Virus record (IMG/VR): IMGVR_UViG_3300031566_000001
Span: 62,001 to 126,000 of that record
Source: a virus
Length of the DNA stretch: 64,000 nt
Direction: 5' to 3' (one strand)
Numbering within the stretch: position 1 is the stretch's first letter; every line of letters begins with the position of its first letter. Below, piece after piece: positions 46,380-63,927 of this stretch. The translations under genes and the position numbers were made by a program. Under the pieces are notes generated by a model. It searched no databases. It saw only the letters and a list, made by a program, of their open reading frames with translations, and was not told where the DNA came from.

Positions 46380-46442
46380 CTTTTGCACAAAAGAGCGAGC
46401 CATCCGTTCTTTTGCCAGCAAAAGGTTGAGTCTAACTATACT
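46380..46442 (+). promoter_or_regulatory. paired-palindrome promoter of the glycan region
   Basis: Palindrome A, CTTTTGCACAAAAG (46380-46393, centre 46386.5), and palindrome B, CTTTTGCCAGCAAAAG (46409-46424, centre 46416.5), are 30 bp apart. TTGCCA (46412-46417) is followed after 19 bp by TATACT (46437-46442). It should drive the fucose-synthase gene and the long operon behind it. Confidence 0.75.
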
Positions 46443-46498
46443 AGGGGTGGTATAGTCGGCACGGTCCTGCCCCCCTCAGCCGTTCCCGGAGGAGTGAG

Positions 46499-47503
46499 AT
46501 GTCTAGCTACTGGAAGGACCGCCGGGTTATCTGCACGGGGGGATCGGGCTTTCTCGGCTCTCACCTGGTCGATGCCCTGAGGCGCTTGGATTGCAAGCCG
46601 TTTGTCCCCCGCTCCGGCCAGTACGATTTGCGGAGTGAAGAGGGCGTTATCAATATGTTCAACGATGCCATGGCGCTGTGGGGCCAGGAGGGGTGCCAAA
46701 CCCTGTTTCACCTCGCGGCGCTGTGTGGTGGTATCGGGTTCAATCAGAAGTTCCCCGCTCGGTTGTGGCATGACAATTTGCTGATGGGCATCCATCTCAT
46801 CAACACGGCGGCATTTTGCGGGGTGGAGAAGTTTGTGGGTGTGGGTACGGTGTGCTCATACCCGAAGCATACCCCGACGCCGTTCAATGAACAGTCCTTG
46901 TGGGACGGTTACCCTGAGGAGACCAATGCTCCTTACGGCCTCGCCAAGAAGGCGCTCCTGGTTGGCCTGCAGGCGTATGGGCAAGAGAGGCAATTAGAGT
47001 GGACCTACGTCATGCCCACGAACCTCTACGGGCCGCGGGATCACTTCGGGGCGCGGTCCCACGTCATCCCGGCCCTGATTGACAAGTTTCTACACGCCAA
47101 AGGGGAGCCTACGGTGTCTGTGTGGGGCACGGGCACGCCCACGCGCGACTTTCTGTACGTCAAGGACTGCGCTGCGGCGCTGCTCCTGGCGGGGGAGTTG
47201 CTTTCGGGAGGTCCGTACAACATCGGCTCAGGACGCGAAATCAGCATCGAGGACCTGGCACGCCTCATAGCGGACGCAGTGGGCTTCCGGGGTCAAATCT
47301 GCTTTGATGCCTTCAAGCCCGACGGCCAGCCACGCCGGGTGCTCGATAGTTCCAAGTTTATGAAACTAACAGAGTGGTCCCCACAGGTGGGGTTCGAGCA
47401 GGGATTGACTCAGACGGTGCAGTGGTATAGAGATTTACAGCAGGACGGCAAGCCTGAGTTGACCGGTGTGCGTGCTGAATCCGGTGGGTCGCCGTCGGTA
47501 TAG
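46499..47503 (+). CDS. fcl: GDP-L-fucose synthase-like epimerase/reductase
   Basis: 334 residues, SDR fold: ICTGGSGFLGSHL for NAD(P), KFVGVGTVCSYPK with catalytic Ser/Cys position, and NAPYGLAKKALL carrying Y-x3-K. CGGIGFNQKFPARLW and NLYGPRDHF fit GDP-L-fucose synthase, which turns GDP-4-keto-6-deoxymannose into GDP-L-fucose. No GDP-mannose dehydratase is in the window, so the substrate must come from the host or from outside. It opens the glycan operon; a GT10 gene lies 4 kb downstream. Confidence 0.8.
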   Translation: MSSYWKDRRVICTGGSGFLGSHLVDALRRLDCKPFVPRSGQYDLRSEEGVINMFNDAMALWGQEGCQTLFHLAALCGGIGFNQKFPARLWHDNLLMGIHLINTAAFCGVEKFVGVGTVCSYPKHTPTPFNEQSLWDGYPEETNAPYGLAKKALLVGLQAYGQERQLEWTYVMPTNLYGPRDHFGARSHVIPALIDKFLHAKGEPTVSVWGTGTPTRDFLYVKDCAAALLLAGELLSGGPYNIGSGREISIEDLARLIADAVGFRGQICFDAFKPDGQPRRVLDSSKFMKLTEWSPQVGFEQGLTQTVQWYRDLQQDGKPELTGVRAESGGSPSV

Positions 47504-47512
47504 GGAGGGAAC

Positions 47513-48160
47513 ATGAACGAGATTGCTGTTTTTCAGATGGGCAAGTGCGGGTCGTCCACGGTCATTGAGCTGGCGCGGAAGCTGGGCATCCACGCTTCGC
47601 GGGCGTACACCCCGATGAATGCTGTGCAGGCACAGTATCCCAACGTCATCAGCATGGCTCGGGAGCCGGTGATCCGGAACGTCTCAGCGTTCTTCCACGA
47701 GATGGCGGGCACGCTGACAGAGACGGGCTACAGCCAGGCGCTGCTAGATGAGTTCCTGCTGGGGAAGCATGATGTGCCGCTGACGTGGTTCTCTAAGGAG
47801 TTCCAGGCTGAGACCGGCATCAGCATCTATGCAGAGAAGTTCGACCGCAAGCGGGGCTGGTCCATCTATGAGAGTGGTAACAGGCGCATCTTGGTCATCA
47901 GGACTGAGGATATGACCAGGTGCCTCCTGGAGGCCATGGGTGCCCTACTGGGTGAGGAGCTGCCACGGGTAGAGGTAGAGCATTGGTTTAGTGATGCTGA
48001 GCGGCCTCACGGCGTGGGCGCTTTGTATCGGCAGTTCATGAGGGAGGCTGTTATGTCGGAGGCGTACCTGAGGCGCATGTATGGCAGCCGGTATGCCAAG
48101 CACTTCTACTACAAGAAGGAGCTTGACAGCTTTCGCGAGTTCTGGAGCGCACCGAGATGA
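47513..48160 (+). CDS. putative sulfotransferase
   Basis: 215 residues. IAVFQMGKCGSSTVIELARK is a PAPS 5'-phosphosulfate P-loop and ISMAREPVIRNVSAFFHEM the 3'-phosphate motif with R and S. These enzymes move sulfate from PAPS to sugars. The first of three such proteins in this region. SD GGAGGG; ends in an ATGA overlap with the next gene. Confidence 0.7.
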   Translation: MNEIAVFQMGKCGSSTVIELARKLGIHASRAYTPMNAVQAQYPNVISMAREPVIRNVSAFFHEMAGTLTETGYSQALLDEFLLGKHDVPLTWFSKEFQAETGISIYAEKFDRKRGWSIYESGNRRILVIRTEDMTRCLLEAMGALLGEELPRVEVEHWFSDAERPHGVGALYRQFMREAVMSEAYLRRMYGSRYAKHFYYKKELDSFREFWSAPR

Positions 48161-48876
48161 GGGTATTCGTGACCACTAATGACCGGCACTTGTGGATACT
48201 TCCGGCCTTTGCGTACCTGTTCAACAAGTACTGGTCCTCTTTGCAACCTGTGGTCGTGGCGGGCTACAGCCGCCCCGACTTTGAGCTGCCCCCCAATTTC
48301 GAGTTCTACCAGATCGCGGAGGCGAACTACCCTGTTGAGAAATGGTCTGACGGGGTGGTGCAGTTCTTGGAATCCGTGAACGATGAGCTGTTCGTGTGGA
48401 TGCTGGAGGATATGCTTCTCACGCGCACGGTAGATGTGCGGGCCGTGGGTAGCCTGGCGGAGTACATGACGCTGCACCACGAGGTCATTAGGATAGACCT
48501 AACTGCTGACAGGCTCTACGCGGGGGCATCGCCGGGGCAGAGGCCTGAGTATGAGTACTACGGTAGCATGGACCTTGTGTGGTCGGAGCCGTCCAGCCCG
48601 TATCATCTCAGCCTGCAAGCGGCTATCTGGCGGCGGGACTACCTGCTGAATTATATGATCCCCGGTGAGACGCCCTGGCAGCTGGAGATGGCAGGTACGG
48701 AGCGGCTATCGAGCACGCCGGAGGTGGTGGTACTGGGCACCCGGCAGCTCCCATGTAGATATACATTGGCCCTCAAGAGCGAGCATCCCACGGAGCCGAG
48801 CATAACCGGGATGCGCCAGGAGGACTATGACTATCTGGTGGAGCGGGGCTGGCTTCCGGAGGGGTGTCTGACGTGA
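48157..48876 (+). CDS. glycosyltransferase-like protein
   Basis: 239 residues: RVFVTTNDRHLWILPAFAYL, then QPVVVAGYSRPDFELPPNFE and FVWMLEDMLLTR. The last is where a DxD-like metal motif would be, here E-D. Alpha-beta pattern and surroundings suggest a GT-A fold enzyme, but no family is certain. Coupled by ATGA upstream and GTGA downstream. Confidence 0.5.
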   Translation: MRVFVTTNDRHLWILPAFAYLFNKYWSSLQPVVVAGYSRPDFELPPNFEFYQIAEANYPVEKWSDGVVQFLESVNDELFVWMLEDMLLTRTVDVRAVGSLAEYMTLHHEVIRIDLTADRLYAGASPGQRPEYEYYGSMDLVWSEPSSPYHLSLQAAIWRRDYLLNYMIPGETPWQLEMAGTERLSSTPEVVVLGTRQLPCRYTLALKSEHPTEPSITGMRQEDYDYLVERGWLPEGCLT

Positions 48877-50090
48877 AGCGAGACATAGACTCAATCATCA
48901 TCGGTGAGCGGCATCGCAAGAACCTGGGGGATATCAAGGTTTTGGCTGCTAGTATAGCGGATATTGGCCTTTTGCATCCTGTGGTGATACGTCCTGATGG
49001 GGTACTCATTGCTGGCCTGCGCAGGCTAGAAGCCTGCAAATTGCTAAGTTGGTCCAAGGTTCCCGTCACAGAGGTGAACCTGGAAGAGATAGTCCGTGGC
49101 GAATCTGCTGAGAATATCTATCGCAAGGACTTTCCATTATCTGAGGCCGTCGCCATAGGCGAGGCCCTAGAACCGTTGGAGGAAGAAGCAGCCAAGAAGA
49201 GAAAGCGAGAAGCTGGCATTGCGAATTTACCGACTGTGAGTGCCAAAAAGTTTTCGGCACTCACGAAGAAAGAAACAGGTGAAACCCTTTCCAAGGTCGC
49301 CGCTGCTATAGGGATGTCTAAGCCGACTTATAAGAAGGCCAAAGAGATTGTTGAAGCAGCACGGAAGAAACCTAAAAAGTATGCTCCGCTTGTAGAGAAG
49401 ATGGACCAGATTGGTAAGGTGGCTGGTATCCACAAAGACCTGAAAAGAATGCAGAAAGCTGAGAAAAAAGCTAAGCAAGCGAAGGCGCAACCTTGCATGG
49501 ATGGGATACTCGTTGGCTCGATCACGGAGGTCGGCACTCAAATTACTGATGATACCGTGGACTTTGTGCTCACGGACCCACCATATGCTGGCGGTCAAGT
49601 TAGTTTGTTCAGTGACTTATCCGCTCTCGTGGCTAGGGTACTAAAACCTGGGGGCCTCTGTTTGGTCTATAGTGGCCAGATGTTCTTGCCGGAGGTTATC
49701 GTTGGCTTGGGTGAACATCTGGAGTACGTTTGGACTTTTGCCATTCGGCACAGTGGCGGCAATCAGCGTATCCACAAGTTCAATCTCAATAACGCGTGGA
49801 AGCCGGTCTTGGCATATTGCAAACCGCCGCTCGAAGTATGGTGGGATAGTTTCATTGATCTCACGACTGGGGGCCGAGAGAAGGACCTTCATAAATGGCA
49901 GCAAGCCGAAACGGAGGCCGCTTATTTCATTGAGCATTTGACCATGCCGGGGGCCCTGGTATTGGATCCGTTCATGGGTAGTGGTACGGTCCTGGCGGCG
50001 GCGAAGCGCTTGGGTCGGGCTTACTTGGGCATCGAAATTGATTCTGACGTGGCTGCGAAGGCGGCGAAGAGGATTGGAGAAGTCAAATGA
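48873..50090 (+). CDS. ParB-like domain fused to a DNA methyltransferase
   Basis: 405 residues from GTG 48873 (SD CGGAGGGG; overlap GTGA). Residues about 1-95 form a ParB/sulfiredoxin-like domain (LAASIADIGLLHPVVIRPDG, LIAGLRRLEAC), a Lys-rich linker follows, and about 200-405 is an N6/N4-type DNA methylase with LTDPPYAGG and DPFMGSGTVL. ParB-methylase fusions occur in phages and protect or mark DNA. The gene is more AT-rich than its neighbours. The DNA target is unknown. Confidence 0.85.
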   Translation: MKRDIDSIIIGERHRKNLGDIKVLAASIADIGLLHPVVIRPDGVLIAGLRRLEACKLLSWSKVPVTEVNLEEIVRGESAENIYRKDFPLSEAVAIGEALEPLEEEAAKKRKREAGIANLPTVSAKKFSALTKKETGETLSKVAAAIGMSKPTYKKAKEIVEAARKKPKKYAPLVEKMDQIGKVAGIHKDLKRMQKAEKKAKQAKAQPCMDGILVGSITEVGTQITDDTVDFVLTDPPYAGGQVSLFSDLSALVARVLKPGGLCLVYSGQMFLPEVIVGLGEHLEYVWTFAIRHSGGNQRIHKFNLNNAWKPVLAYCKPPLEVWWDSFIDLTTGGREKDLHKWQQAETEAAYFIEHLTMPGALVLDPFMGSGTVLAAAKRLGRAYLGIEIDSDVAAKAAKRIGEVK

Positions 50091-50524
50091 CCCGACAACG
50101 CATGGATGGAAAAGGAACACCCTTTGGCGAATGGCTTAGGACCCGCCACCAAGGCAAGATAGGGTCGCACACTTTCTCCGCCCAGAACCTTGACTACATT
50201 TGGCACAATTACCGCGAGAATTGGTTCATCACCATCGAAGAGAAGCGCTACGGCGGTATGAGGGACCGGAGTGCGCAGAGAGCTCAAAGGGATACCCATG
50301 GCATAGTAGCGCAATTGCTCGAAGGGTCTTCGGGTATGGATGTTGATACGCTGCGGGGCCATCGAAGGGCTGAGTATCGTGGTCATTATGAGATTGTGTT
50401 TGACCGGACCAGCCCGGACGATGGTGATATGACCATCAATGGGAGGCAGGCGAACGAGCAAGATTTGCTTAGACTCTTGACGGTTGGCAGATGGTCATGG
50501 AGTTCTGCGGAGTTGGAGCTATGA
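50087..50524 (+). CDS. hypothetical protein after the methylase, possible nuclease
   Basis: 145 residues, coupled by ATGA to the methylase. GTPFGEWLRTRHQGKIGS and WHNYRENWFITIEEKRYGG; the E-E-K strand could be part of a PD-(D/E)XK active site, but the other residues are not obvious. If a nuclease, it might pair with the methylase. Low certainty; it is also AT-richer than most genes here. Confidence 0.45.
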   Translation: MTRQRMDGKGTPFGEWLRTRHQGKIGSHTFSAQNLDYIWHNYRENWFITIEEKRYGGMRDRSAQRAQRDTHGIVAQLLEGSSGMDVDTLRGHRRAEYRGHYEIVFDRTSPDDGDMTINGRQANEQDLLRLLTVGRWSWSSAELEL

Positions 50525-51423
50525 TCACCGTCCCCATCCGCGACGGCACCTTCCCGCACAGCGCCTCCATGTCCCTGGCTGGCGAGAACGCGGGCGAGGC
50601 CCCGAAGTCTCTGCACTGGCGCCGTGTGCCGGACCTCCTGGATGATGCGCCTGTGATGGTGTTCACGGATATGTGCCTGGATGAAGTCTTGCTCTCCCGG
50701 TCCCCGACGAACATCGCCATTCTTATAGAGCCGCCTGCGTTCTCCACGACTCATTATGAGAAAGCTGTGATGCTGGAGAAGTACTTTGATGCCATATTCA
50801 CCTATGACCTGGAGCACCTGCGCCGTGGCGGCCCGTGGCGGTTCTACCCCTATGGCGGGTCGAGGATTCAGGAGTGGCACGTCTACGAGAAGCTGGGGCT
50901 AGTGAGCCTCATTGTGTCGGATAAGCACGTCACGGAGGGGCACCGCCTCCGCCATGAGGCTGTTGAGCGGTTCGGCTCGCACCTACACGTCTTTGGGGAG
51001 CCTTATACCGAGTACCTTAACCCGAAGGGACCAGGGCTGCGGCCCTTCTGTTATTCCGTTGTCATCGAGTCTGGGCGGAGTGACTACTATTTTAGTGAGA
51101 AGCTCGTTGACTGCTTCTCACAGGGAGCGGTGCCCATCTACTGGGGCTGCCCTGGCATTGACGGGTTTTTTGAGGGGAACGGGATCATCTCCTTTGAGAC
51201 CCTGGATGACCTGGCGTACATCCTGGCGTCCATCTCAATGCAAGACTATCACGACCGCTTGCCTGCTATCATGCGTAATCTGGAGCTGGCGCGGAGCTTT
51301 CGGTGTGCCGAGGACCACCTGGTACGGGAGTATGGCTGGCTTTTCGAGGACAGTGAGCAGGCGGCCCTGATGCGCATGCAGAGCAAGGAGCAGCTGGTGC
51401 AGAGTGAGCCGGTAATCAGGTAA
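50521..51423 (+). CDS. GT10-family fucosyltransferase-like protein
   Basis: 300 residues from ATG 50521, coupled by ATGA. The C-terminal part has FCYSVVIESGRSDYYFSEKL then VDCFSQGAVPIYWGCPGI, the donor-binding signature of GT10 alpha-1,3/1,4-fucosyltransferases. These move fucose from GDP-fucose to a glycan. A GDP-fucose synthase gene lies in the same operon, so a phage fucosylation step is likely. The acceptor is unknown. Confidence 0.75.
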   Translation: MITVPIRDGTFPHSASMSLAGENAGEAPKSLHWRRVPDLLDDAPVMVFTDMCLDEVLLSRSPTNIAILIEPPAFSTTHYEKAVMLEKYFDAIFTYDLEHLRRGGPWRFYPYGGSRIQEWHVYEKLGLVSLIVSDKHVTEGHRLRHEAVERFGSHLHVFGEPYTEYLNPKGPGLRPFCYSVVIESGRSDYYFSEKLVDCFSQGAVPIYWGCPGIDGFFEGNGIISFETLDDLAYILASISMQDYHDRLPAIMRNLELARSFRCAEDHLVREYGWLFEDSEQAALMRMQSKEQLVQSEPVIR

Positions 51424-51430
51424 GGAGGGG

Positions 51431-51775: not shown

Positions 51776-52475
51776 CAAACGGCTGTTCTTCGTGATCGGT
51801 CCACCCCGGTCCGGCACGACCATCGTGGCCAGAGTATTCAACTCCTTAGAAGATGGGTTCTGCTTAGGGGAGCCGCACTGGATTCACGAGGCTGAGGGCG
51901 GCAAGGCTGACGGGCAGGCCTACGGCAAGGTCGAACGGTGGCACAAGCCCGTGGATGATTACCGGCTCATCATGCAGGCCAATGTGATACCGATCCTGGA
52001 GCGGGGTCCTTTCAAGGTTGGAGGCTACAAGGAGACTTACCAGCACTTCCGGCATACCTGCGAGCCTTTGCTGGAGGCTCACATGCCCTTGGTAGACTTC
52101 TTCATCGTGGTGCTTCGGGACCCCCGACTGGTGCTATCCTCGCTGCGGGCGCTGGGCTGGGACAATGTGCGAGTGAGAGACATCAATCAAGACTACGAGC
52201 GCATGAGTGAGCTGGCGCAGGATGAGCGGGCGGTCGTGGTGGTCTTGGAGGACTTCGTGAAGGACCCCCTGGGATACCTGAATGCGTGGCTGCCCTTTCA
52301 GATCGAGGGGCCTTTGGAACTGAAGCCCACGGGTCACAGGTACGGTGACACGGTTGCCAATAAGGGTGATACTGTGGACCCCGAGGCGCCGGGCCGGAGA
52401 GTTATGGACCTCAGCGACAAGTGGGTGCGGGGTTTGGCCCCGGCCATGGGGGTGTGGGAACGATGGAAGAGCTAA
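51756..52475 (+). CDS. sulfotransferase-like protein
   Basis: 239 residues with a clear P-loop, FVIGPPRSGTTIVARVF (about 12-28), typical of sulfotransferases, and VVLRDPRLVLSSLRAL (about 110), the 3'-phosphate motif. Donor would be PAPS, substrate probably a sugar. SD GGGGGG. Confidence 0.75.
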   Translation: MRTNLSDKRLFFVIGPPRSGTTIVARVFNSLEDGFCLGEPHWIHEAEGGKADGQAYGKVERWHKPVDDYRLIMQANVIPILERGPFKVGGYKETYQHFRHTCEPLLEAHMPLVDFFIVVLRDPRLVLSSLRALGWDNVRVRDINQDYERMSELAQDERAVVVVLEDFVKDPLGYLNAWLPFQIEGPLELKPTGHRYGDTVANKGDTVDPEAPGRRVMDLSDKWVRGLAPAMGVWERWKS

Positions 52476-53281
52476 GGGCCTTGATGGGACGGTACACTGT
52501 GGAGAACCTGGACCCTTTTGAGGCATCTGACGGGATGGAGGCCAAGCGGTTCCAGGAGCGCATCGAGTCCCTGCCGGGCACGGTGTACGGTGATGACCCC
52601 AATCAGCGCCCGTTTGATAACGTGTTCACCTGGGGGCACGACCATGATTTCGGGACCTTCCAGATGAAGGGCCAGATGGGAGATCGGCACATCCGGGTGG
52701 TCAAGGCGTTCCTGGATATGGGGGTGGAGTTCAAGGGCCGTGTGCTGGACGTGGGCTGCTGGACTGGTGGCACATCGCTCCTACTGGCGGCGATGGGGTG
52801 CGAAGTCACCGCTGTTGAAGAGGCTCTTCATTATGCTGGGGTCATGAACTTTTTGGCGCAGGCCTTTGGCCTTGGGAGTCAACTGGAGGTCATTCATTGG
52901 TCCCTTTACGACCTTCCGGGCTTTTGTGAGCCGGTGGACATGGTGGGGAGGTTTGACCTGGTTTTGTGCGCGGGCGTCCTGTACCATGTGACTGATCCTG
53001 TACGTGCTCTACGCATCATGTTTGAGCGTTTGGCAGACGGCGGGACGTTGTTGCTGGAGACCGCGATCTCTGAGGTTACGGGCAAGCATTTGGTCTACTG
53101 CGGCCCGCAAGAGCCGGGTTACCGATGGCTCCTACCTACGGTGGAGGTGTTGTACTGCATGTTGGTGGACGTGGGTTTCAAGGACATTCAACACGAACTG
53201 CACGCTGACGGCAGCCGGGCTACGGTAGTCGCTAAAAGGAAGGAACACGTGAGTATGATGATGGCGGGGGTATCGAGGTGA
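52463..53281 (+). CDS. class I SAM-dependent methyltransferase
   Basis: 272 residues from ATG 52463. VLDVGCWTGGTSLLLAAMGC (about 90) is motif I with the usual acidic end of strand 2 (VEEAL), and FDLVLCAGVLYHVTDPVRAL the motif IV region. Resembles small-molecule or tRNA-modifying methylases (CmoB-like shape) as well as sugar methylases; the neighbours favour a glycan. Overlaps the sulfotransferase. Confidence 0.75.
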   Translation: MEELRALMGRYTVENLDPFEASDGMEAKRFQERIESLPGTVYGDDPNQRPFDNVFTWGHDHDFGTFQMKGQMGDRHIRVVKAFLDMGVEFKGRVLDVGCWTGGTSLLLAAMGCEVTAVEEALHYAGVMNFLAQAFGLGSQLEVIHWSLYDLPGFCEPVDMVGRFDLVLCAGVLYHVTDPVRALRIMFERLADGGTLLLETAISEVTGKHLVYCGPQEPGYRWLLPTVEVLYCMLVDVGFKDIQHELHADGSRATVVAKRKEHVSMMMAGVSR

Positions 53282-53817
53282 CCATAACAGCTTTTGACCT
53301 TTCAGATGGGAATGAACCAATGAGTTACGGCGAGATCAACTTCCTGGTCTCATTGGTCAAGGACCTTACGGCAGAACCGGTCATCGTCAACATCGGGGCC
53401 GCGGATGGTGTGTCCACCGTGGCTATGCTGGAGGCCCGCAGGGATGCCTTCATCTTCTCTGTGGACATCGGCGAGTGCCCCCAGGAGCGGGCCAACGTAG
53501 AGGCTGCTGGGCTTGATGTAACCCGCGTGGTGCGACTCTTAGGGCGCAGTCAGGACGTCGGCAAGCGGTTCCCCTATGAGGCTGATATGGTGCTTGTGGA
53601 TGGAGGGCATGATTATGAGTCCGTGGGGGGGGATATTGAGGTCTGGGCTTGGCGCGTGCGACCTAGCGGGGTGCTGGCGTTTCACGACTACATCGAGCCA
53701 CCCCGGCCTGCGAACAACCCGAGTGAGGCTTTTGAGGCTGTGAATGATAACCTACCGGACGGGTTTGAGCTGGTCAGCCGTGTGGACAGGCTGATTGCAT
53801 TCAGGAGGGTGGGGTGA
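53278..53817 (+). CDS. SAM-dependent methyltransferase, Methyltransf_24-like
   Basis: 179 residues from GTG 53278. VIVNIGAADGVSTVAMLEAR, FIFSVDIGECPQER and ADMVLVDGGHDYESVGGDIE fit this family. The C-terminal domain of the protein at 56000 is a paralogue, with the same VNIGAAxG and VRxLGRSQ pattern. Probably a glycan methylase. Confidence 0.75.
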   Translation: MTITAFDLSDGNEPMSYGEINFLVSLVKDLTAEPVIVNIGAADGVSTVAMLEARRDAFIFSVDIGECPQERANVEAAGLDVTRVVRLLGRSQDVGKRFPYEADMVLVDGGHDYESVGGDIEVWAWRVRPSGVLAFHDYIEPPRPANNPSEAFEAVNDNLPDGFELVSRVDRLIAFRRVG

Positions 53818-54065: not shown

Positions 54066-54456
54066 TGGGGAACTGCGGGAGCTGGACGCACAGGTGGCCG
54101 AGGAGGTGATGGAAGTTGAACTCTGTCACCATGAGTTGCACGAGACGAAGCCCGTTTGCAAGTACTGCCACCTTAATGAGGGTTTCTGGCAGCCGAAGTG
54201 GGGAAGAATAGAGCCACCGAATCACTATTCCACTGACATGGCCCATGCCTGGCCGGTTCACAAGATGGCTTGCTCATGGCTCTTCAGTAAGCGTAGGCTC
54301 TACTTGGTGGCGCTGCAGGGTGTGGTGTGTGAAAGGCTACGTAAAGAGGGCGAGCTAAGGGTAAAGGGCAAGGTGGCATGGCCCGATGTGCTGGTTTTCT
54401 TGGGGCCGATAGACATCTGCAATGCGGCCCTGGAGGTGGTGCGAGATGTCCCTTGA
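54046..54456 (+). CDS. phage ABA-sandwich-domain-like protein
   Basis: 136 residues from ATG 54046 or 54049. CHHELHETKPVCKYCH is a small metal site, and PNHYSTDMAHAWPVHKM fits the start of the Phage ABA sandwich domain (P-x-Y-S-T-D-x-x-A-A-W). Found in many phages, function unknown. It sits inside the glycan region as an unrelated insertion. Confidence 0.6.
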   Translation: MMARRDNGELRELDAQVAEEVMEVELCHHELHETKPVCKYCHLNEGFWQPKWGRIEPPNHYSTDMAHAWPVHKMACSWLFSKRRLYLVALQGVVCERLRKEGELRVKGKVAWPDVLVFLGPIDICNAALEVVRDVP

Positions 54457-55733: not shown

Positions 55734-55736
55734 GAC

Positions 55737-55780: not shown

Positions 55781-55790
55781 GGAGGACACC

Positions 55791-56000: not shown

Positions 56001-57202
56001 TGGAGCCAAGGGGCATTCTCTACTTTGCCATAGGTAGTAGGTATCTCATGCAGGCACAGAAGGCCGTGGCTCGCGTGCGGGACGTGTGGCCTGGGATGCC
56101 GTGCGCTATCTGGACGGAGCGGGTACCTGGTCCGGTGATGCTATCCCGTATGGAGGCCTGGCGGCAATCACCCTTCGAGCGCACCCTGGCCCTGGATGCA
56201 GACGTGTGGCTGGCGGAGCCGGTGCCGGAGGTCTTTGACTTACTGGACCGCTTCGACCTGGCGGCGGCGTATGCCCCCTGGAGAGAGGGTTATCCTGTGA
56301 ATGTGCCCGATGCCTTCCCGGAGCACAACTGCGGCGTGGTGGCCTTTCGTAAAGATGTGATCCTACTGGATTTCATGAACGATTGGGAGCGGAGGTTCCG
56401 GGAGCGCTACAGGGACATAGAGGAGATCAAGGGTTTCCACAATGATCAACCCGCTTTCCGGGAGGCCCTGTACTACTCAAGGGTGCGTGTCGCTACCCTG
56501 CCAGCGGAGTACAACTGGCGGGGTGTGGGTTATGTTTGGGGGAAAGTGAAGGTGCTGCACGTCAGGCGCCCGCCCCAGATGGTAGAACGGGAGATCAATG
56601 AGCGACTTGGACCAAGGGTGTGTATGAACTGGAAGATTCACTATGGAGAGGAGTTCCACCCGTCGATGATGCTGGAGGCGATAGACCTGACTGGCAAGGA
56701 CTACCATCACGAGCTAGAGGACATAGACACGCTGAAACGGCTGGCGGGGATGCTGCCCAGGGATGCGGTGGTAGTCAACATCGGGGCTGCGTTTGGTACG
56801 AGCGCCCTAGCACTCCTGGAGGCCCGTGAGGACCTGTTCGTGTTCTCTGTGGATGTGAAGCCCTGTGAGAAGGAGAGGGAACACCTGGCGCAGTCGGGCG
56901 TGGACCCGGCGCGGTGCGTGCGGGTGCTGGGTCGCTCTCAGGAGATAGGGTGGCCGCGTGTGGTGGATATGGTTTTTCTGGATGGTTCCCATGCCCGCAA
57001 GGACGTGATAGCGGACATCGAGGCATGGCTGCCCCGAATCAAGCCAGGGGGCATCGTGGCGGCTGATGACTACGAGAAGGGCTGCACACCTGCGGTGAAG
57101 CCTGTGGTGGATGAGGTGCTGATGGGCAAGTATGAGATGATCCTGCACGTGGGGGATATCGTGGCATTCAGGATACAGGGAGGGGACGATGGCAGAGCGT
57201 GA
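56000..57202 (+). CDS. glycosyltransferase fused to a Methyltransf_24-like domain
   Basis: 400 residues from GTG 56000. The N-terminal half has RTLALDADVWLAEPVPEVFD, a DxD motif in a GT-A context, and NCGVVAFRKD, as in nucleotide-sugar transferases with known donor sugar. The C-terminal half (about 235-395) has VVVNIGAAFGTSALALLEAR, VRVLGRSQEIGW and VDMVFLDGSHARKDV, paralogous to the protein at 53278. So one chain both adds and methylates a sugar. The gene at 60390 has the same two functions in opposite order. Confidence 0.75.
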   Translation: MEPRGILYFAIGSRYLMQAQKAVARVRDVWPGMPCAIWTERVPGPVMLSRMEAWRQSPFERTLALDADVWLAEPVPEVFDLLDRFDLAAAYAPWREGYPVNVPDAFPEHNCGVVAFRKDVILLDFMNDWERRFRERYRDIEEIKGFHNDQPAFREALYYSRVRVATLPAEYNWRGVGYVWGKVKVLHVRRPPQMVEREINERLGPRVCMNWKIHYGEEFHPSMMLEAIDLTGKDYHHELEDIDTLKRLAGMLPRDAVVVNIGAAFGTSALALLEAREDLFVFSVDVKPCEKEREHLAQSGVDPARCVRVLGRSQEIGWPRVVDMVFLDGSHARKDVIADIEAWLPRIKPGGIVAADDYEKGCTPAVKPVVDEVLMGKYEMILHVGDIVAFRIQGGDDGRA

Positions 57203-57380
57203 GTGCCTGGAGTGCGGCTGCGTGCGCGGCGAGTACCTGTGCCGGGTGGCGGAGCATCTCTGGGGCAGGGTAGAGTCGTTCTACCAGCGCAGCCAGAGGA
57301 TGGGCTTCGATGAGAAGACCTGGAGCGATTATCAAGGGGCGCTGGCAGACTACAAGGCGCATTTCGGCAGGGAATCATGA
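57189..57380 (+). CDS. small zinc-like protein
   Basis: 63 residues from ATG 57189 (SD GGGAGGGGACG). CLECGCVRGEYLC is a compact Cys group at the N-terminus, the remainder is helical. Coupled to the sugar methylase by ATGA. Function unknown. Confidence 0.5.
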   Translation: MAERECLECGCVRGEYLCRVAEHLWGRVESFYQRSQRMGFDEKTWSDYQGALADYKAHFGRES

Positions 57381-58183
57381 ATGAGCAAGACCTCAAGGAC
57401 GCCTTCGCGGCCCTGGAGCCGATGAGTGACGAGGCCCCGCCCCGGTACACGTGGGAGCGGCACCGGTGGGAGATGCGCCGCCATGTGCGCCGGGATCCCA
57501 TTGCGGGGTTCTTGAACTGGCCCACGGTGACGGCTACCATGTTCGCGGGGGAGACCCCGTTTATCCGTTCTGAGCTGGAGGCCCTGCGGGCGCAGCCTGA
57601 TTGGGCGATCCCTTGGCGGCCTGCCATCGCGGATAGCGGAATAGGCAATGCCCCACGGATGTCCGGCGACACTTCCACGAACGCCAATATGATTCATCAG
57701 GCTTTTCACCTGATGATGTGGAACAAGGCCACGCTCAAGGAGCTGCGGGACCTGGAGACCATCACGGAGTTCGGTGGGGGCTATGGGGCCATGTGCCTGA
57801 TAGCGTCAAGATTGGGGTTCCGGGGCACCTACCGCATGGTGGACTTCCCCGAGATGCGGCTTCTGCAGACCTACTACCTGTCACAGCACGAGCTGGGGTG
57901 CACGGTGGAGTTTCGGGAGGTCATCGGCCCACCGCGTTCAGACCTGTTGGTGGCTTGTTATTCGCTGAGTGAGGTCCCGCTAGAGGATCGCAAGCCGCTT
58001 CTCGGGGACGGGCGCGCTGACCATGCGGCCAATAGCTATCTCTTTGCCATGCAGGATAAGTGGGATGACGTGGACAATCTGGATTGGGTGAGGCAGTTTA
58101 CTATGTGGGACAGGGACGACTTGCTGTGGTCCATCTTCCCGATGGTGAGGCCGGGGCACTGGTACGCGATGGGCAATGCCTAA
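57377..58183 (+). CDS. putative sugar O-methyltransferase
   Basis: 268 residues. ITEFGGGYGAMCLIASRLGF is a methylase motif I and GTYRMVDFPEMRLLQTYYL its motif II region; the pair E-F-G-G-G-Y-G is typical of a family annotated as putative sugar O-methyltransferase. Acts with GTs on LPS or capsule in bacteria. ATGA overlap upstream. Its 3' end overlaps the first MPKW copy. Confidence 0.7.
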   Translation: MNEQDLKDAFAALEPMSDEAPPRYTWERHRWEMRRHVRRDPIAGFLNWPTVTATMFAGETPFIRSELEALRAQPDWAIPWRPAIADSGIGNAPRMSGDTSTNANMIHQAFHLMMWNKATLKELRDLETITEFGGGYGAMCLIASRLGFRGTYRMVDFPEMRLLQTYYLSQHELGCTVEFREVIGPPRSDLLVACYSLSEVPLEDRKPLLGDGRADHAANSYLFAMQDKWDDVDNLDWVRQFTMWDRDDLLWSIFPMVRPGHWYAMGNA

Positions 58184-58238: not shown

Positions 58239-58247
58239 GGAGGAGAA

Positions 58248-58394: not shown

Positions 58395-58458
58395 ATGCCC
58401 AAGTGGACTGAGGATCTAAACGCATAGGTCATAGAACGCGACGAAGGTGGAGGATGAG
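58395..58458 (+). repeat. truncated copy 2 of the HNH gene start
   Basis: ATG 58395 begins MPKWTEDLNA and stops at TAG. At DNA level the copy continues through GGTCATAGAACGCGACGAAG and GTGGAGGATGAG, like copy 1 and, in its first part, the intact HNH gene. The premature stop shows it is decayed as a coding sequence, while its SD-like end still serves the next gene at 58461. Confidence 0.6.
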
Positions 58459-58460
58459 GG

Positions 58461-58733: not shown

Positions 58734-59002
58734 ACCTAGAGGTCATAGAACGCGATGAGGAACGATGTATCCTCTGTCCTGCGCCAGCGATGTATAAGCC
58801 GCACCACATCGTCCCCAGGTCTAGGGGCAAGGGGCGGAGTCCGAAACTATGGCGCTTAGAGAATATGTGTTGCGTCTGCCCACTACACCATGACAATACC
58901 AAGGCACTGCGAATCAGGTTGCTTGAGAGAATGGTTGAGCTTGGGCATGATATGACTTGGGCCAGAGAATTTGTCGGCGAGATCGCGGGGGTGACATGCT
59001 AA
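58709..59002 (+). CDS. HNH-type endonuclease-like protein
   Basis: 97 residues from ATG 58709 (SD GGAGG). CILCPAPAMYKPHHIVPRSR and LENMCCVCPLHHDNTK carry the H-H, N and H of an HNH site with two CxxC pairs for structural zinc. Phage HNH proteins nick DNA in packaging or act as homing enzymes. The first 17 codons are duplicated twice upstream. Overlaps a DNA methylase gene by 7 bp. Confidence 0.75.
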   Translation: MPKWIDDLNLEVIERDEERCILCPAPAMYKPHHIVPRSRGKGRSPKLWRLENMCCVCPLHHDNTKALRIRLLERMVELGHDMTWAREFVGEIAGVTC

Positions 59003-60393
59003 TCTGCGCTGACTCTAGGGCTGCGCTGGCAGAGATAGAAGAGGGGAGCGTACAGTGCTGCATCACCTCTCCGCCATACTGGAGCCTCCGCAGGTACGGC
59101 GATGCAGCGGAGATGGTCTTTGGCGGCGATGCTGGCTGTGAGCATGAGTGGGGGCAGCACATTGTCAATCGGCGGGGCGCAGGCGGCGAGAGGGAATATG
59201 GCAGCTCTGATAGCGGTGTGGGCCGGGGGCCGGCACCCGAGTTGCCCTCCTCCAATATCTGCTCCCTCTGCGGCTGCTGGCGCGGTCAGTTCGGATTAGA
59301 GCCCACCCCCGAGATGTACGTGGAGCACATGCTGGACTTTTTGCGGGCAATATGGCGGGTGCTGAGGGATGATGGGACGCTGTGGCTGAATCTCGGGGAC
59401 TCTTATGCGAGTCAGGGGGGGGCTAAGACAGAAGCCTCATACGCCTCAGCAGGCACGGGCAATAGTGCCAATCGGACGCTGCGGGTTGATGCCCGGAGAC
59501 CACCCGGAGGCCTCAAGCCCAAGGACCTCGTGATGATCCCCTTCCGCGTGGCGTTGGCTGCGCAGGCAGACGGGTGGTGGGTGCGGTCGGTGATCATCTG
59601 GTCCAAGCCTAACCCCATGCCAGAGTCAGTGCGGGACAGGCCGACAACGGCGCATGAATACGTGTTCCTCTTGACGAAGAGCAAGACCTACTTCTACGAT
59701 GCCGATGCGATAAGGGAGCCATGTACCATGACGCCCCAGGCCAGGTTGACTCCACGAGACATGAAGAATGGCAAGGATAGCCAGCGGGCCGTTCACCGTA
59801 GACCACAATACCAGCTCCGAGATGAGCCAGGGGTAGAGGGCAACCCATTAGGCCGCAACAAGCGTACGGTCTGGGAGATAGCCACGGCCCCATATCCCGG
59901 CGCCCACTACGCAACATTTCCTCCCAAGCTAGTAGAGCCGATGATACTGACCACGCCCACGAAGGTCTGCGCTGAGTGCGGGGCTGGGTGGGAGAGGGTG
60001 GTTCAGAAGCCCGACATGAAGGAGCGACCAAAGCGCAACCAGCAGAAATACGGAGCAGAGCGCATCAATGTTGGCTGGGGTGACTACCCGCAGAGCGCGG
60101 GGCAGGAGTGGCAAAAGTGGCGCAACGAGAACCCTGACGTAACCCTTGGCTTCCGCCCCACCTGCTCCTGTGATGCTGAGACCAAGCCCGCCGTCATCTT
60201 AGACCCCTTCTGTGGTAGGGGCACCGTTCTCAAAGAGGCAAGAGCGCATGGCCGGGACTGGATAGGCATAGACGTCGATCCTCAATCTATCAAGCTGGCG
60301 GAGGAATGGCTGGGGCTAGGGGAGGTTACCTATGAGATTGACGAAGAGCATTGGATACAGCCGCAATTAGTCAATGAGGAGTCAGCACAATGA
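58996..60393 (+). CDS. DNA methyltransferase (N4-cytosine or N6-adenine type)
   Basis: 465 residues from ATG 58996. CCITSPPYWSLR is the catalytic motif IV (SPPY, as in many N4-cytosine methylases) and ILDPFCGRGTVLKEARAHGR motif I, in the beta-class order. Two CxxC pairs (CSLCGC; CAECGAGW) may bind zinc. Probably protects phage DNA; with the HNH gene next to it a restriction-modification-like pair is conceivable but not shown. ATGA overlap downstream. Confidence 0.8.
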   Translation: MLICADSRAALAEIEEGSVQCCITSPPYWSLRRYGDAAEMVFGGDAGCEHEWGQHIVNRRGAGGEREYGSSDSGVGRGPAPELPSSNICSLCGCWRGQFGLEPTPEMYVEHMLDFLRAIWRVLRDDGTLWLNLGDSYASQGGAKTEASYASAGTGNSANRTLRVDARRPPGGLKPKDLVMIPFRVALAAQADGWWVRSVIIWSKPNPMPESVRDRPTTAHEYVFLLTKSKTYFYDADAIREPCTMTPQARLTPRDMKNGKDSQRAVHRRPQYQLRDEPGVEGNPLGRNKRTVWEIATAPYPGAHYATFPPKLVEPMILTTPTKVCAECGAGWERVVQKPDMKERPKRNQQKYGAERINVGWGDYPQSAGQEWQKWRNENPDVTLGFRPTCSCDAETKPAVILDPFCGRGTVLKEARAHGRDWIGIDVDPQSIKLAEEWLGLGEVTYEIDEEHWIQPQLVNEESAQ

Positions 60394-61652
60394 TCTTTTC
60401 CAATCGTCACGAGGTGGAGACACACCTGGCTGAGCAGGCCGATGGGGGTGTCATCGTCGAAGTGGGCTGCGGCGTAGGCGATGGCCTGGTGGCCCTGCTC
60501 AACGGCACGCGGTACGGTAGACTTTTGCCTGTGTATGCTGTCGATCCTTATACTCCCTACGTGGACAAGCTGGGGGGCACCTACGGGCCGGAGAGCAAGC
60601 AGGAGGCCCTGGATAAGGTGGTGGGCACGGGGTTGGGGCGGTTGGTGGCCTTCGTCGAGGAGGACGGCGTACTGGTGGGCGAAAATTGGGACTTGCCTAC
60701 GGCCCTGGTGTGGATTGACGTCAGCATGGAGTATGACGGTCTCAAATGCGTCTGGGACGCCTGGGCGGACAAGGTCATGGAGGACGGACATATCGCTATC
60801 GCGGGCCTGGGTTATAGCAGCCTGGGTACAGCGCGGGTGATGCAGGAGGCCGTTGACTCGGGGGACTTCGTGCGGGTGCTGTCGGAGCAGGACAGGGTGG
60901 CGGTACTACGCAGGGTGCCCCGGAATAGGCGGGCCGTGTTCTACATCGTGGATGGTGAACCCTATGCTGAGGAGGCGGCTTACAGTGCGTCCAGTGTCAA
61001 GGAGCACATGCCCGGCGTGGAGACCTTTCTGTTTGCGGTGGGTGGCACAGGGGCCAGGGAGAGCATCGACCACGTAGTGCTCTTGCCGCCTCGGGAGAGC
61101 GAGCTGTGGTACCTGGACAGCACGCGGTACTTCAACCAGGCGGTGGCGCACCTCCACGAGTACAACCGTCTTTTGTACCTTGACACGGATACCTGGGTGG
61201 CCTGGGACTGTTTGGATATGTGGTGGCTCCTAGAGCAGTTTGACGTGTGCCTGGGGCACAGTGCGGGCCGGGAGGCCATGCCTTCAGCGATTGGGACGCC
61301 CCCGGCGTTCACTACCCTGTCTATCGGGGTTAGTTTATTCCGCAACAACGCGGAGGTCCGGGCTACGCTGGCGGACTGGCTGGCGTTCTACGAGAAGTAC
61401 CAGGGCATCTACGGCGACAATGATGAGAGTCCTTTAAGGGATGTGCTGTGGCTGAATCGGCAGGGGCTGAAAATGTATATCCTGCCCCCTGAGTACAACG
61501 TCCGAGCTGGGTTTGGGTGCTGGCTCTACGGTCGGGCTAGGATAGTTCATGCTCGGCTGCCTCGGTTGAGGCATGTAGCAGAGCAGTTGAATGAGCACAC
61601 GTCTATGCGTTTGTGGCACGATGGTGAGTTCTTGTGGTGGCATCAGAAGTGA
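60390..61652 (+). CDS. methyltransferase-like domain fused to a glycosyltransferase
   Basis: 420 residues. N-terminal VIVEVGCGVGDGLVALLNGT (about 22-41) is a SAM motif I, and TALVWIDVSMEYDGLKCVWD follows. From about 185 FYIVDGEPYAEEA, then LLYLDTDTWVAWDCLDM, a DxD, and TLSIGVSLFRNN, as in GT8-like enzymes. So the order is methylase then glycosyltransferase, the reverse of the protein at 56000. Coupled by ATGA to the DNA methylase. Confidence 0.7.
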   Translation: MIFSNRHEVETHLAEQADGGVIVEVGCGVGDGLVALLNGTRYGRLLPVYAVDPYTPYVDKLGGTYGPESKQEALDKVVGTGLGRLVAFVEEDGVLVGENWDLPTALVWIDVSMEYDGLKCVWDAWADKVMEDGHIAIAGLGYSSLGTARVMQEAVDSGDFVRVLSEQDRVAVLRRVPRNRRAVFYIVDGEPYAEEAAYSASSVKEHMPGVETFLFAVGGTGARESIDHVVLLPPRESELWYLDSTRYFNQAVAHLHEYNRLLYLDTDTWVAWDCLDMWWLLEQFDVCLGHSAGREAMPSAIGTPPAFTTLSIGVSLFRNNAEVRATLADWLAFYEKYQGIYGDNDESPLRDVLWLNRQGLKMYILPPEYNVRAGFGCWLYGRARIVHARLPRLRHVAEQLNEHTSMRLWHDGEFLWWHQK

Positions 61653-61665
61653 AAGGTGGTGAAGG

Positions 61666-61944
61666 ATGGACAGCAACGTCTTAACCCGAGGCATAATTCC
61701 CCTGAGGCGCATCAAGCGCCTGCGTAGGTGCATGAACCCCAGTTGCCGCTTCGTGGTCGGCGCGGGCAAGATGGCCTTGGAGAGCACCAACATCGGTGAG
61801 TTCGCGCGGTTGACCTGCCCTAAGTGCGGAGCACTGCATGTGTTCAACCCCATCTCTACTGTGAGGCCTGATGCTGAGCGGCACATCTTCGTGGTCCGTG
61901 ACCGGGGTGGTCAGGTAGAGCATATTTTCCCGAGGGTGCAATGA
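61666..61944 (+). CDS. small zinc-ribbon protein
   Basis: 92 residues. CMNPSCRFVV and CPKCGALHVF, about 36 residues apart, form a zinc ribbon; the N-terminus is basic (LRRIKRLRR). Coupled to the following gene by ATGA. Function unknown. Confidence 0.55.
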   Translation: MDSNVLTRGIIPLRRIKRLRRCMNPSCRFVVGAGKMALESTNIGEFARLTCPKCGALHVFNPISTVRPDAERHIFVVRDRGGQVEHIFPRVQ

Positions 61945-62390
61945 GGCGGCGCTACTTTGAGTGGGATTACGTTAGTAACCGCATGACTGAGTGGGCTCGC
62001 GTGGGGCACTGCTGCCAGTGCGCCGCGTGTTGTCAGAACAGCATCGGCTTCAAGTTTGAGAGCAGCAAGCTCTATGAAGCGAAGAAATCGGGCAGTTACT
62101 ACACCACTGGCAAGGGCATCTGGCAGGAGGTCCGCGTAGGGGGCCGGTACAGGCACTTCTTCCAAATGGAGTACGTGGCTGCCAAAGGGAAGGGGTGCGC
62201 CAGCCTGGAGCGTGGCTTGTGCGAGGAGTATGAGCACCGTACTTGGATTTGCCGGGAGTGGCCCTTCTCGCCGCGCTGCATAGAAGCCACCTCGGAGTGT
62301 ACTTATGGATTCCGCGAGGTTGATCGTAGGTCTTTTGTGGTCGTCGTCCCTGAGAAGGACGAGGGCGATTTCGTACATGTGCCATTGTAG
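61941..62390 (+). CDS. YkgJ-like metal-cluster-binding protein
   Basis: 149 residues. CCQCAACCQN at about 24-33, GCASLERGLCEEYEHRTWIC (about 89-108), then REWPFSPRC, fit the YkgJ family (C-x3-C-x2-CC then C-x-I/L...C-x-I/V-Y-x-x-R-P-x-x-C-R-x-W-P), thought to bind Fe or Zn. Its role is not known. In this cluster it may modify a sugar or peptide. Confidence 0.65.
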   Translation: MRRRYFEWDYVSNRMTEWARVGHCCQCAACCQNSIGFKFESSKLYEAKKSGSYYTTGKGIWQEVRVGGRYRHFFQMEYVAAKGKGCASLERGLCEEYEHRTWICREWPFSPRCIEATSECTYGFREVDRRSFVVVVPEKDEGDFVHVPL

Positions 62391-62399
62391 GAGGGTGTT

Positions 62400-63059
62400 A
62401 TGGTCACTAAGGCCATCATGCTCATCCACGTCTTCCGGACCGGTGGTTACATGGTGCAGGGGGTCCTACGGAAGGTCCCTGGCCTGGTGATGGTCTCGGA
62501 TAGGCCCACGGAGCACCTGACCTATGATCAGATGGCTGTGGTGTGCGCGAGAGAACGCATGGGGAACCCGCCCGCTATGGTTTTTATCCGCAACCCTTTT
62601 GACTGGTATGTCTCTATGTGGTGCTGGGTCAACATGGCGCCGAACATGCCTCCAGTCTCGGAGTTCCGCGAATACCTGGAGGTCATCCGGGTGCGGCGCT
62701 ATGGCACCACGGGGACGGGCCGCAACTATAGCAGGCTCTCCGAGCACTGGGCTGACATGGGGGCAGGCAAGGCGCAGTGGGAGGGGCGCTTTGAGACTCT
62801 ACGGGAGGACTTCATGGACATCATGCTCAAGGTCATGCCCAGCCTGGTGAACGAGAAGATGTTAGGGGACCTCATGGCCAAGGAACCCATCTATCACCCC
62901 AGCAGGCATCCTCAGACAGGTAGGCATCCTGGGGACTATCGGCAATACTACACCCCGGAGACAAGGGCATTGGTCGAGGAGTGGGACAGTGAGCTTCTAG
63001 AGCGGTTCGGTTACACTTTTGAGGAGAAGGTAGATGATATACCCAATCCCGGTGCCTGA
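62400..63059 (+). CDS. sulfotransferase-family protein
   Basis: 219 residues. IMLIHVFRTGGYMVQGVLRK occupies the P-loop position but is altered (R-T-G-G rather than G-x-x-R-S-G-T); MVFIRNPFDWYVSMWCWV is the 3'-phosphate motif, and DYRQYYTPETRALVEEWDSE the C-terminal helix typical of the family. The weak P-loop may mean a changed donor or loss of activity. SD GTAGGAGGG. Confidence 0.65.
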   Translation: MVTKAIMLIHVFRTGGYMVQGVLRKVPGLVMVSDRPTEHLTYDQMAVVCARERMGNPPAMVFIRNPFDWYVSMWCWVNMAPNMPPVSEFREYLEVIRVRRYGTTGTGRNYSRLSEHWADMGAGKAQWEGRFETLREDFMDIMLKVMPSLVNEKMLGDLMAKEPIYHPSRHPQTGRHPGDYRQYYTPETRALVEEWDSELLERFGYTFEEKVDDIPNPGA

Positions 63060-63927
63060 TGAGTTCCGCCCGGCCAGCCAGGGTTACACTATGCCGCCGC
63101 ACTGCCCGCCGGAGGGGTACGGCGTGGAGCAGGACTTTGACGCTTGGTTACGGACGCAAGGGGAGCTTTTGACTGATTCCGCGGAGGCCGACTGGCTGTA
63201 CCTCCCGGTGTTCTGGAACCGGCTCTTTATTGCCACCTGGAAGTGGGCGCAGGATGAGGCCGCCATAGCCCGCTGCGCCGATTGGCTGGCGGCTCTCAGG
63301 GATAGTTTGGGCGGCTTTGAGAGGGTGTTCACCGTCTGTGAATGGGACCTGACCACGGAGCGGCAGGAGCTGGGCACGGACGGGCTGACTGTGTTCACGG
63401 CGGGGCGTCGGGATCGCGCAGGCCTTGATATACCGTTGCTCTGTGCCCCACATGGCGTCCCGCCGGTTTCATACGGCAAGCAATACCTGGCGTCATTTGT
63501 GGGCAACATTGGGACGTCAGGCTGGCGTCAGGGTATGTTGGAGGCCCTGGAGGGCTACGGCGGGGTCCTCATCGAGCACGCACAGAAGGGGCCAGCCTAT
63601 TTCTGTGATGTGATGACCAAGAGCTACGTGGCCCTGGCCCCCAGGGGTCACCGGGGGCAGAGCTTCCGGTTCTACGAGGCCATGGACATGGGTGTGGCCC
63701 CGGTCCTGATCGGTGATATGGATACCCGGCCCTTTAAGAATTGGGTCAATTGGGACTCATGCTCTTACTACGTTCCTGACGCCTCGGAACTTCCCGGCTT
63801 TATTGACAACCTGGACCTGGAGGACGCGTTACGCAAGGGCGCGGAGGCGGCACGGGTATACCATGAGTGTCTGCGGTTCGGGCGGTGGTGCATGTTTGTG
63901 GTGCCTGAGCTGCTGAGCGTGCCGTAA
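63034..63927 (+). CDS. exostosin/GT47-like glycosyltransferase
   Basis: 297 residues from ATG 63034, overlapping the previous gene by 26 bp. KSYVALAPRGHRGQSFRFYE, then AMDMGVAPVLIGD and PFKNWVNWDSCSY, fit the C-terminal nucleotide-sugar-binding region of exostosin-like enzymes. The N-terminal half is less clear. Final gene before a hairpin at the window end. Confidence 0.7.
   Translation: MIYPIPVPDEFRPASQGYTMPPHCPPEGYGVEQDFDAWLRTQGELLTDSAEADWLYLPVFWNRLFIATWKWAQDEAAIARCADWLAALRDSLGGFERVFTVCEWDLTTERQELGTDGLTVFTAGRRDRAGLDIPLLCAPHGVPPVSYGKQYLASFVGNIGTSGWRQGMLEALEGYGGVLIEHAQKGPAYFCDVMTKSYVALAPRGHRGQSFRFYEAMDMGVAPVLIGDMDTRPFKNWVNWDSCSYYVPDASELPGFIDNLDLEDALRKGAEAARVYHECLRFGRWCMFVVPELLSVP

What the first reader, a model, noticed from the sequence alone, without database searches (positions are those of the whole stretch)
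46380..63927. A 17-kb phage glycan assembly and modification region
One promoter-led region holds a fucose synthase, at least five glycosyltransferase domains, three sulfotransferase-type proteins, at least six methylase domains not aimed at DNA, a radical-SAM-like protein and a YkgJ-like protein. Together with the triple GT this is far more than the single GT usually seen in phages. A fucosylated, sulfated and methylated glycan on the virion or host surface is a reasonable hypothesis, perhaps to avoid receptor or defence recognition.
Basis: inference. Interest (0 to 1): 0.82.

Follow-up and report, generated by a model that had tools for sequence, protein, structure and literature searches.

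The report
Phage virion sugar-coating gene cassette
This uncultured phage carries about fifteen enzymes that would build and decorate a fucosylated, sulfated, methylated sugar chain; in its relatives the same kinds of genes sit directly beside the capsid gene, which suggests that the sugar coats the virus particle.

Summary
The block is real. Of its 26 ORFs, about 15 are glycan-type enzymes: a GDP-L-fucose synthase, five glycosyltransferase (GT) domains, three sulfotransferase-type proteins, six non-DNA methyltransferase domains, a SPASM/radical-SAM-like and a YkgJ-like protein. It also holds two DNA methyltransferases. No leading promoter was found, and some cyanophages carry comparable gene counts. 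The 143-kb record is an assembly chimera of two sister phages joined at a TnpB gene. Both carry the block, and its enzymes are under purifying selection as strong as on virion genes (dN/dS 0.09-0.23). The key result comes from relatives. The triple GT (window 28819-31449) has 223 relatives in IMG/VR. In 50 of 50 loci where all three genes were recognised it lies between the putative major capsid gene and a downstream head gene. All 66 recognised homologues of this block's genes in those loci lie in that same interval, none in 539 kb outside. The window's lineage keeps only the triple GT there and carries the rest 15 kb downstream. Best reading: cytosolic glycosylation of virion proteins, cassette relocated. 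DNA hypermodification and O-antigen conversion are less likely. No acceptor, glycan or expression has been shown. New variant of a known kind.

The parts
27262..28761 (+). putative major capsid protein (g118), 499 aa
   Evidence: profile of 45 homologues vs annotated major head protein of Streptomyces phage TG1: hhalign E 1.2e-4, score 40.7; 10 other TG1 proteins score at most 22.7, five shuffles at most 18.1; 91% identical in sister A; no PDB match
28819..31449 (+). triple glycosyltransferase GT4-GT2-GT2 plus C-terminal extension (g119), 876 aa
   Evidence: Pfam; catalytic-type residues of all three domains invariant in 8 relatives; 223 viral relatives; between capsid candidate and g120 in 50/50 loci
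31456..32721 (+). conserved head-module gene (g120) that closes the capsid-side interval
   Evidence: found downstream of the triple GT in all loci where both were seen
46499..47503 (+). GDP-L-fucose synthase (SDR epimerase/reductase)
   Evidence: PDB GDP-L-fucose synthases E 2e-52; PF01370 E 2e-45; no separate GDP-mannose 4,6-dehydratase gene in the record
47513..48160 (+). NKWYS-family sulfotransferase-type protein
   Evidence: PF10364 E 1.4e-10; dN/dS 0.135
48157..48876 (+). GT-like protein (g136) that lies beside the capsid gene in relatives
   Evidence: 36-member family alignment, in capsid-side intervals wherever the interval is resolved; Pfam hits only weak GT2/GT-D in a few members; AlphaFold model unusable, pLDDT 41
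48873..50090 (+). ParB-like + N6/N4 DNA methyltransferase; not in the sister phage at this place; probably not part of the glycan pathway
50521..51423 (+). GT10-type (alpha1,3-fucosyltransferase-like) glycosyltransferase
   Evidence: PDB FucT 2nzw E 1.2e-4; cyanophage GT10-type proteins 33-39% identity
51756..52475 (+). PAPS-type sulfotransferase
   Evidence: PF13469 E 9e-9; PRSGTT loop and LRDPR motif
52463..53281 (+). class I SAM methyltransferase
   Evidence: PF13489 E 3.5e-13
53320..53817 (+). Methyltransf_24 methyltransferase (the longest ORF starts at 53278)
   Evidence: PF13578 E 8e-16
54446..54973 (+). Methyltransf_24-like methyltransferase
   Evidence: PF13578 E 8e-6
54975..55733 (+). 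SPASM/radical-SAM-like protein, BtrN-like
   Evidence: PF13186, PF04055; BtrN 4m7s E 9e-13; cysteines at 9, 18, 27, no CX3CX2C
56048..57202 (+). fusion: DxD glycosyltransferase-like domain + Methyltransf_24
   Evidence: PF13578 E 3e-14; DxD domain homologous to that of 60390-61652
57377..58183 (+). putative sugar O-methyltransferase
   Evidence: cyanophage sugar O-methyltransferase-type proteins E 4e-4 to 2e-5; 32-36% identity to homologues in relatives
58996..60393 (+). N6/N4 DNA methyltransferase; not in the sister phage at this place
   Evidence: PF01555 E 6e-36, phrog_67
60390..61652 (+). fusion: Methyltransf_24 + DxD glycosyltransferase-like domain
   Evidence: PF13578 E 3e-6; 90% identical in sister, dN/dS 0.085
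61941..62390 (+). YkgJ-like CxxCxxCC protein
   Evidence: PF03692 E 1.7e-4, just below cut-off
62400..63059 (+). sulfotransferase-type protein
   Evidence: phrog_3347 Galactose-3-O-sulfotransferase E 1.5e-4
63034..63927 (+). exostosin-type GT47 glycosyltransferase
   Evidence: PF03016 E 4e-13; exostosin-1 E 3e-4

Best explanation
The block encodes a cytosolic pathway that builds and decorates a glycan on virion proteins, most likely the capsid and perhaps tail proteins. The triple GT next to the putative capsid gene would lay down the core sugars (inferred: one GT4 and two GT2 domains, so up to three linkages). The block's GTs (GT10, GT47, the two GT/methyltransferase fusions, g136) would extend it. 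GDP-L-fucose synthase would supply GDP-fucose from the host's GDP-4-keto-6-deoxymannose, since the phage has no separate 4,6-dehydratase gene. Sulfotransferases (using host PAPS) and O-methyltransferases would cap it. Shown: enzyme families, conservation in a sister phage, purifying selection, absence of membrane glycan machinery, and a capsid-side location of the same gene kinds in relatives. Inferred: joint action, acceptor, glycan structure, and relocation of the cassette in this lineage.
For: Relatives: in 50/50 loci with all three genes, order is capsid candidate < triple GT < g120; 66/66 recognised homologues of block genes (22 g136-type GT, 19 Methyltransf_24, 13 fucose synthase, 5 sugar methyltransferase, 3 GT10, 3 ParB-methyltransferase, 1 YkgJ) lie in that interval, 0 in 539 kb outside. 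Pfam of 146 interval ORFs: Methyltransf_24 in 16, GT2 in 14, DegT sugar aminotransferase in 12, epimerase in 6, Sulfotransfer_1 in 5. The window lineage has the three smallest intervals, holding only the triple GT (2.7 kb; median 6.8 kb), and carries the other genes in the block. Sister phage A keeps the glycan enzymes in the same order, dN/dS 0.085-0.227 against 0.06-0.29 for virion genes; the DNA methyltransferases of the block differ between sisters. No multi-TM protein in the block; 2 of 186 interval ORFs with two or more TM-like segments. Precedent: cluster O mycobacteriophages have three tandem GTs downstream of an O-methyltransferase that modify capsid and tail tube (PMC11600133).
Against: No acceptor, glycan or expression data. 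In this phage the block is after the lysis genes, not beside the capsid gene. Capsid identity of g118 rests on gene order and one modest profile match; both AlphaFold models failed. The relatives were chosen by their triple GT, are partly redundant, and the flanks outside the interval are dense with structural genes, so the binomial p (4e-35) is overstated. The sulfotransferases of the block (apart from one NKWYS match), its GT47 and its radical-SAM-like protein were not recognised in the relatives' loci by their own profiles.
Confidence: 0.62

Rival explanations
1. The enzymes remodel the host's surface polysaccharide during infection, blocking competing phages or stopping released virions from binding debris, as proposed for cell-surface sugar genes of cyanophages.
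For: Cyanophages carry the nearest cultured-phage homologues of the GT10, epimerase and sugar methyltransferase, and those gene sets are interpreted as host cell wall/LPS modification (PMC9602691).
Against: No flippase, polymerase or membrane-bound GT in the block or, with one or two exceptions, in relatives' cassettes; capsid-side location in relatives. The cyanophage interpretation is itself not experimental in the passage read.
Confidence: 0.17
2. The enzymes glycosylate or otherwise hypermodify DNA bases.
For: Virus-encoded GTs can act on DNA (Pyle et al. 2024, cited in PMC12619734; not read here); the block contains two DNA methyltransferases.
Against: No thymidylate-synthase-family hydroxymethylase (controls rang) and no C5-cytosine methyltransferase (controls rang); TET/JBP search negative but without a positive control. 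The DNA methyltransferases differ between sister phages while the glycan enzymes stay.
Confidence: 0.06
3. The block is a storage area of unrelated morons (independent acquisitions with separate substrates) rather than one pathway.
For: GT10, GT47, NKWYS, radical-SAM-like and YkgJ proteins belong to unrelated families; small ORFs and DNA methyltransferases vary between sisters.
Against: Gene order and content of the glycan enzymes conserved at dS about 1; recurrent co-occurrence of epimerase, GT, methyltransferase, sulfotransferase and aminotransferase families in one interval of relatives.
Confidence: 0.12

Closest known systems
Virion glycosylation of mycobacteriophages (Corndog, Che8, Myrna; Freeman et al. 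2023 as cited in PMC12363180 and PMC11600133)
   Same: Phage-encoded GTs with a methyltransferase neighbour; capsid and tail tube reported as acceptors; three GT activities (three tandem genes in cluster O, three domains in one protein here).
   Different: Here a fused GT4-GT2-GT2 beside the capsid candidate, plus fucose synthase, GT10, GT47, sulfotransferases and many methyltransferases. No mycobacteriophage was matched by the triple GT among the organism names counted. No virion chemistry here.
Cell-surface sugar gene sets of T4-like cyanophages (S-SCSM1, S-SSM7)
   Same: GDP-fucose synthase, fucosyltransferases, several GTs, sugar O-methyltransferase; nearest cultured-phage homologues.
   Different: Those are large T4-like phages, S-SCSM1 with its own GDP-mannose dehydratase; here a roughly 70-kb siphophage-like genome, no separate dehydratase, sulfotransferases, and a capsid-side core GT.
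Chlorovirus PBCV-1 capsid glycosylation
   Same: Virus-encoded cytoplasmic glycosylation of the capsid protein; fucose pathway; multi-domain protein A064R with two GT domains and a methyltransferase domain; methylated terminal sugar (PMC7019647).
   Different: Algal virus; no sulfotransferase mentioned in the passages read; homology was not tested here.

Membership tests
phage virion glycosylation systems | glycan demonstrated on capsid or tail protein | not testable with these tools
   needs purified virions
phage virion glycosylation systems | phage-encoded GTs with accompanying methyltransferase genes | tested here: met
phage virion glycosylation systems | genes lie with the virion structural genes | tested here: met
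   triple GT next to putative capsid gene in window phage and relatives; block-type genes beside it in relatives, but not in the window phage itself
GtrABC-type O-antigen conversion | membrane flippase and membrane-bound serotype-specific GT | tested here: not met
   no multi-TM protein in the block
DNA base hypermodification pathways | hydroxymethyl-pyrimidine source (thymidylate synthase homologue, or C5-methyltransferase + TET) | tested here: not met
   PF00303 and PF00145 absent with working controls; PF12851 negative without control
GDP-L-fucose synthase | closest to solved GDP-L-fucose synthases among SDR epimerases | tested here: met
   top PDB hits E 2e-52; MPTNLYGP and SHVxPALI-type motifs aligned
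GT10 fucosyltransferases | sequence match to GT10 enzymes | tested here: met
   2nzw E 1.2e-4 over 58 residues; homologue annotated as glycosyltransferase family 10 in S-SCSM2R; no Pfam match at E<0.1
radical SAM enzymes | CX3CX2C cluster motif | tested here: not met
   Cys at 9, 18, 27 in both sisters; sequence matches to BtrN, Radical_SAM and SPASM remain
HK97-type major capsid protein (g118) | sequence/profile relation to a known capsid protein | tested here: inconclusive
   one specific hhalign match, E 1.2e-4; no PDB profile match; AlphaFold failed

The most novel reading that the evidence does not exclude
A widespread, uncultured phage lineage (223 viral contigs seen) in which capsid glycosylation is a hallmark trait: a conserved triple GT beside the capsid gene builds a core glycan, and an exchangeable neighbouring cassette (sugar nucleotide synthesis, GTs, methyl-, amino- and sulfo-transferases) gives each phage its own virion 'serotype'. 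In the window's lineage the cassette was expanded and moved out of the head operon.
Probability: 0.4. Interest if true: 0.8.

Novelty: new variant of a known kind. Interest (0 to 1): 0.62.

Why it matters
Virion glycosylation has been demonstrated in few phages (mycobacteriophages in the papers read here). If this reading is right, it is a defining trait of a large lineage with no recognisable relative of its capsid candidate among 50,697 GenBank phage records, with far richer chemistry (fucose, sulfate, methyl, amino sugars) and a locus that varies beside the capsid gene like an O-antigen locus. It gives a concrete gene set to test what sugar coats do for phages in soil and water, where antibodies are not the selecting agent.

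Tried and rejected
Structure prediction of g136 and of the capsid candidate failed (pLDDT 41 and 29), so no fold search was run. Search for the block's MT+GT fusion in IMG/VR found only the sister phage. The C-terminal extension of the triple GT found no relative in PHROGs and none of note in GenBank phages. A promoter before the block: not found. Host: one capsid relative lies in a contig of an archaeal MAG, probably mis-binned; host left open. Small-interval relatives L089, L105 and L095 showed no g136-type GT (no positive control in that call) and no epimerase elsewhere in their contigs, so relocation of a cassette is seen only in the window's lineage. A tandem double genome was considered for the 143-kb record and rejected: two independent assemblies of sister A run straight through the TnpB gene.

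Full report
The record and the window. The window is 62001-126000 of a 143,142-base IMG/VR record. Gene calling gave 187 genes, 186 on one strand. Comparing the record with itself shows two successive versions of one gene order, mostly at 50-90% protein identity. Independent contigs of sister A from two metagenomes (IMGVR_UViG_3300031539_000018, 69,345 b, and 3300031565_000061) run directly from about 62.2 kb to 136.0 kb of the record through a TnpB gene that is 98% identical in both versions. 143,142 minus 73,797 (the distance between the two TnpB copies) is exactly 69,345. The record is therefore a chimera of phage A (about 69 kb) with the whole of phage B (about 74 kb) looped in. The finding's block lies entirely in phage B, and phage A has a syntenic counterpart in contigs assembled separately.

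What is in the block. Families were assigned with Pfam, PHROGs, PDB sequence search and GenBank phage search. The fucose synthase is the best supported (E 2e-52 to solved GDP-L-fucose synthases). A search for the GDP-mannose dehydratase family in the record hit only that same gene and its sister, so the precursor would have to come from the host. The radical-SAM-like protein is closest to BtrN, known to me as an alcohol dehydrogenase of an aminocyclitol, but it lacks CX3CX2C in both sisters. The GT-like halves of the two fusion proteins share a DxD domain with only weak glycogenin matches. The block's GC is like that of the rest of the window.

Selection. With dS near 1 between A and B, dN/dS of the block's enzymes is 0.085-0.227, within the range of the other genes (0.06-0.31). 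The block is an old, maintained component. DNA methyltransferases and several small ORFs in it differ between sisters.

Relatives. A scan with the g136 GT found IMG/VR contigs in which g136, methyltransferase, fucose synthase and sugar methyltransferase homologues stand next to a full-length homologue of the triple GT, between homologues of g118 and g120. An alignment of eight triple GTs keeps the catalytic-type residues of all three domains (E206 and E214; D385/D387/D388 with E474/D475; D639/D641/D642 with E720/D721). Scanning IMG/VR with it gave 223 relatives, of which 80 were fetched. Profile mapping: in all 50 loci where the three genes were recognised the order is capsid candidate, triple GT, g120; a further 21 show triple GT before g120. 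The interval is 2.7-13.6 kb, median 6.8 kb, and 36 of the 50 contain at least one of the block's gene families. All 66 recognised homologues lie inside, none outside. Pfam on 146 interval ORFs shows methyltransferases, GT2, DegT-type aminotransferases, epimerases, sulfotransferases and a few DNA methylases. Caveats: loci were selected on the triple GT, some contigs are near-duplicates, and the outside sequence is structural and gene-dense.

Relocation. Phages A, B and a third relative C (L051) have the three smallest intervals, with only the triple GT in them. A and B carry the other genes about 15 kb downstream, after an amidase and a holin-like gene with three TM-like segments. C's contig ends before that point. 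Relocation is the simplest reading, but independent gain of the block cannot be excluded.

Is g118 the capsid protein? Gene order (terminase; then large head-module genes; tape measure downstream) and high conservation suggest it. A 45-member profile matches the annotated major head protein of Streptomyces phage TG1 (E 1.2e-4) and none of ten other TG1 proteins or five shuffles. There is no PDB match, and AlphaFold with three sequences failed. Supported, not proven.

Target. Virion: capsid-side location in relatives, no membrane machinery, and the mycobacteriophage precedent, where three tandem GTs and an O-methyltransferase lie together and capsid and tail tube are modified (PMC11600133; PMC12363180). 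Host surface: the cyanophage interpretation (PMC9602691), not excluded. DNA: no known route to a hydroxymethyl base was found.

Known or new. Phage glycan gene sets and virion glycosylation are known. New here are the fused GT4-GT2-GT2 as a fixed neighbour of the capsid candidate across a large uncultured lineage (no GenBank phage record with a g118 relative; none matching the triple GT over 80% of its length), the cassettes with sulfotransferases, and the distal block in the window's lineage. Two literature searches for capsid-linked glycan cassettes in phages found nothing equivalent, in an open-access library only.

Noticed in passing
record G000 62226-63847 and 136022-137643 (window 226-1847 for the first): The 143-kb IMG/VR record is a chimera of two sister phages joined at a 98%-identical IS605-type TnpB gene; sister A alone is IMGVR_UViG_3300031539_000018.
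   Followed up: yes
window 421-1632: The same TnpB gene sits at the same place in both sisters with dS 0.07 against about 1 for other genes: recent transfer, gene conversion or assembly mixing.
   Followed up: partly
window 31180-31449: The C-terminal extension of the triple GT carries CxxC and a conserved domain, followed in several relatives by a helix-hairpin-helix-like tail; no family found.
   Followed up: partly
window 54975-55733: Radical-SAM-like protein without CX3CX2C (Cys 9, 18, 27) yet under strong purifying selection (dN/dS 0.085): a variant cluster motif or a repurposed fold.
   Followed up: partly
L129: An 82-kb contig binned as Candidatus Nitrosotalea (an archaeon) encodes terminase, portal, capsid and triple-GT-like relatives: mis-binned phage, or a hint at an archaeal host.
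   Followed up: no
L007:4741-7379 (G000 130240-132878): Adjacent MoxR-like AAA ATPase and DUF2201 VWA/metallopeptidase genes, conserved in both sisters; role in a phage unclear.
   Followed up: no
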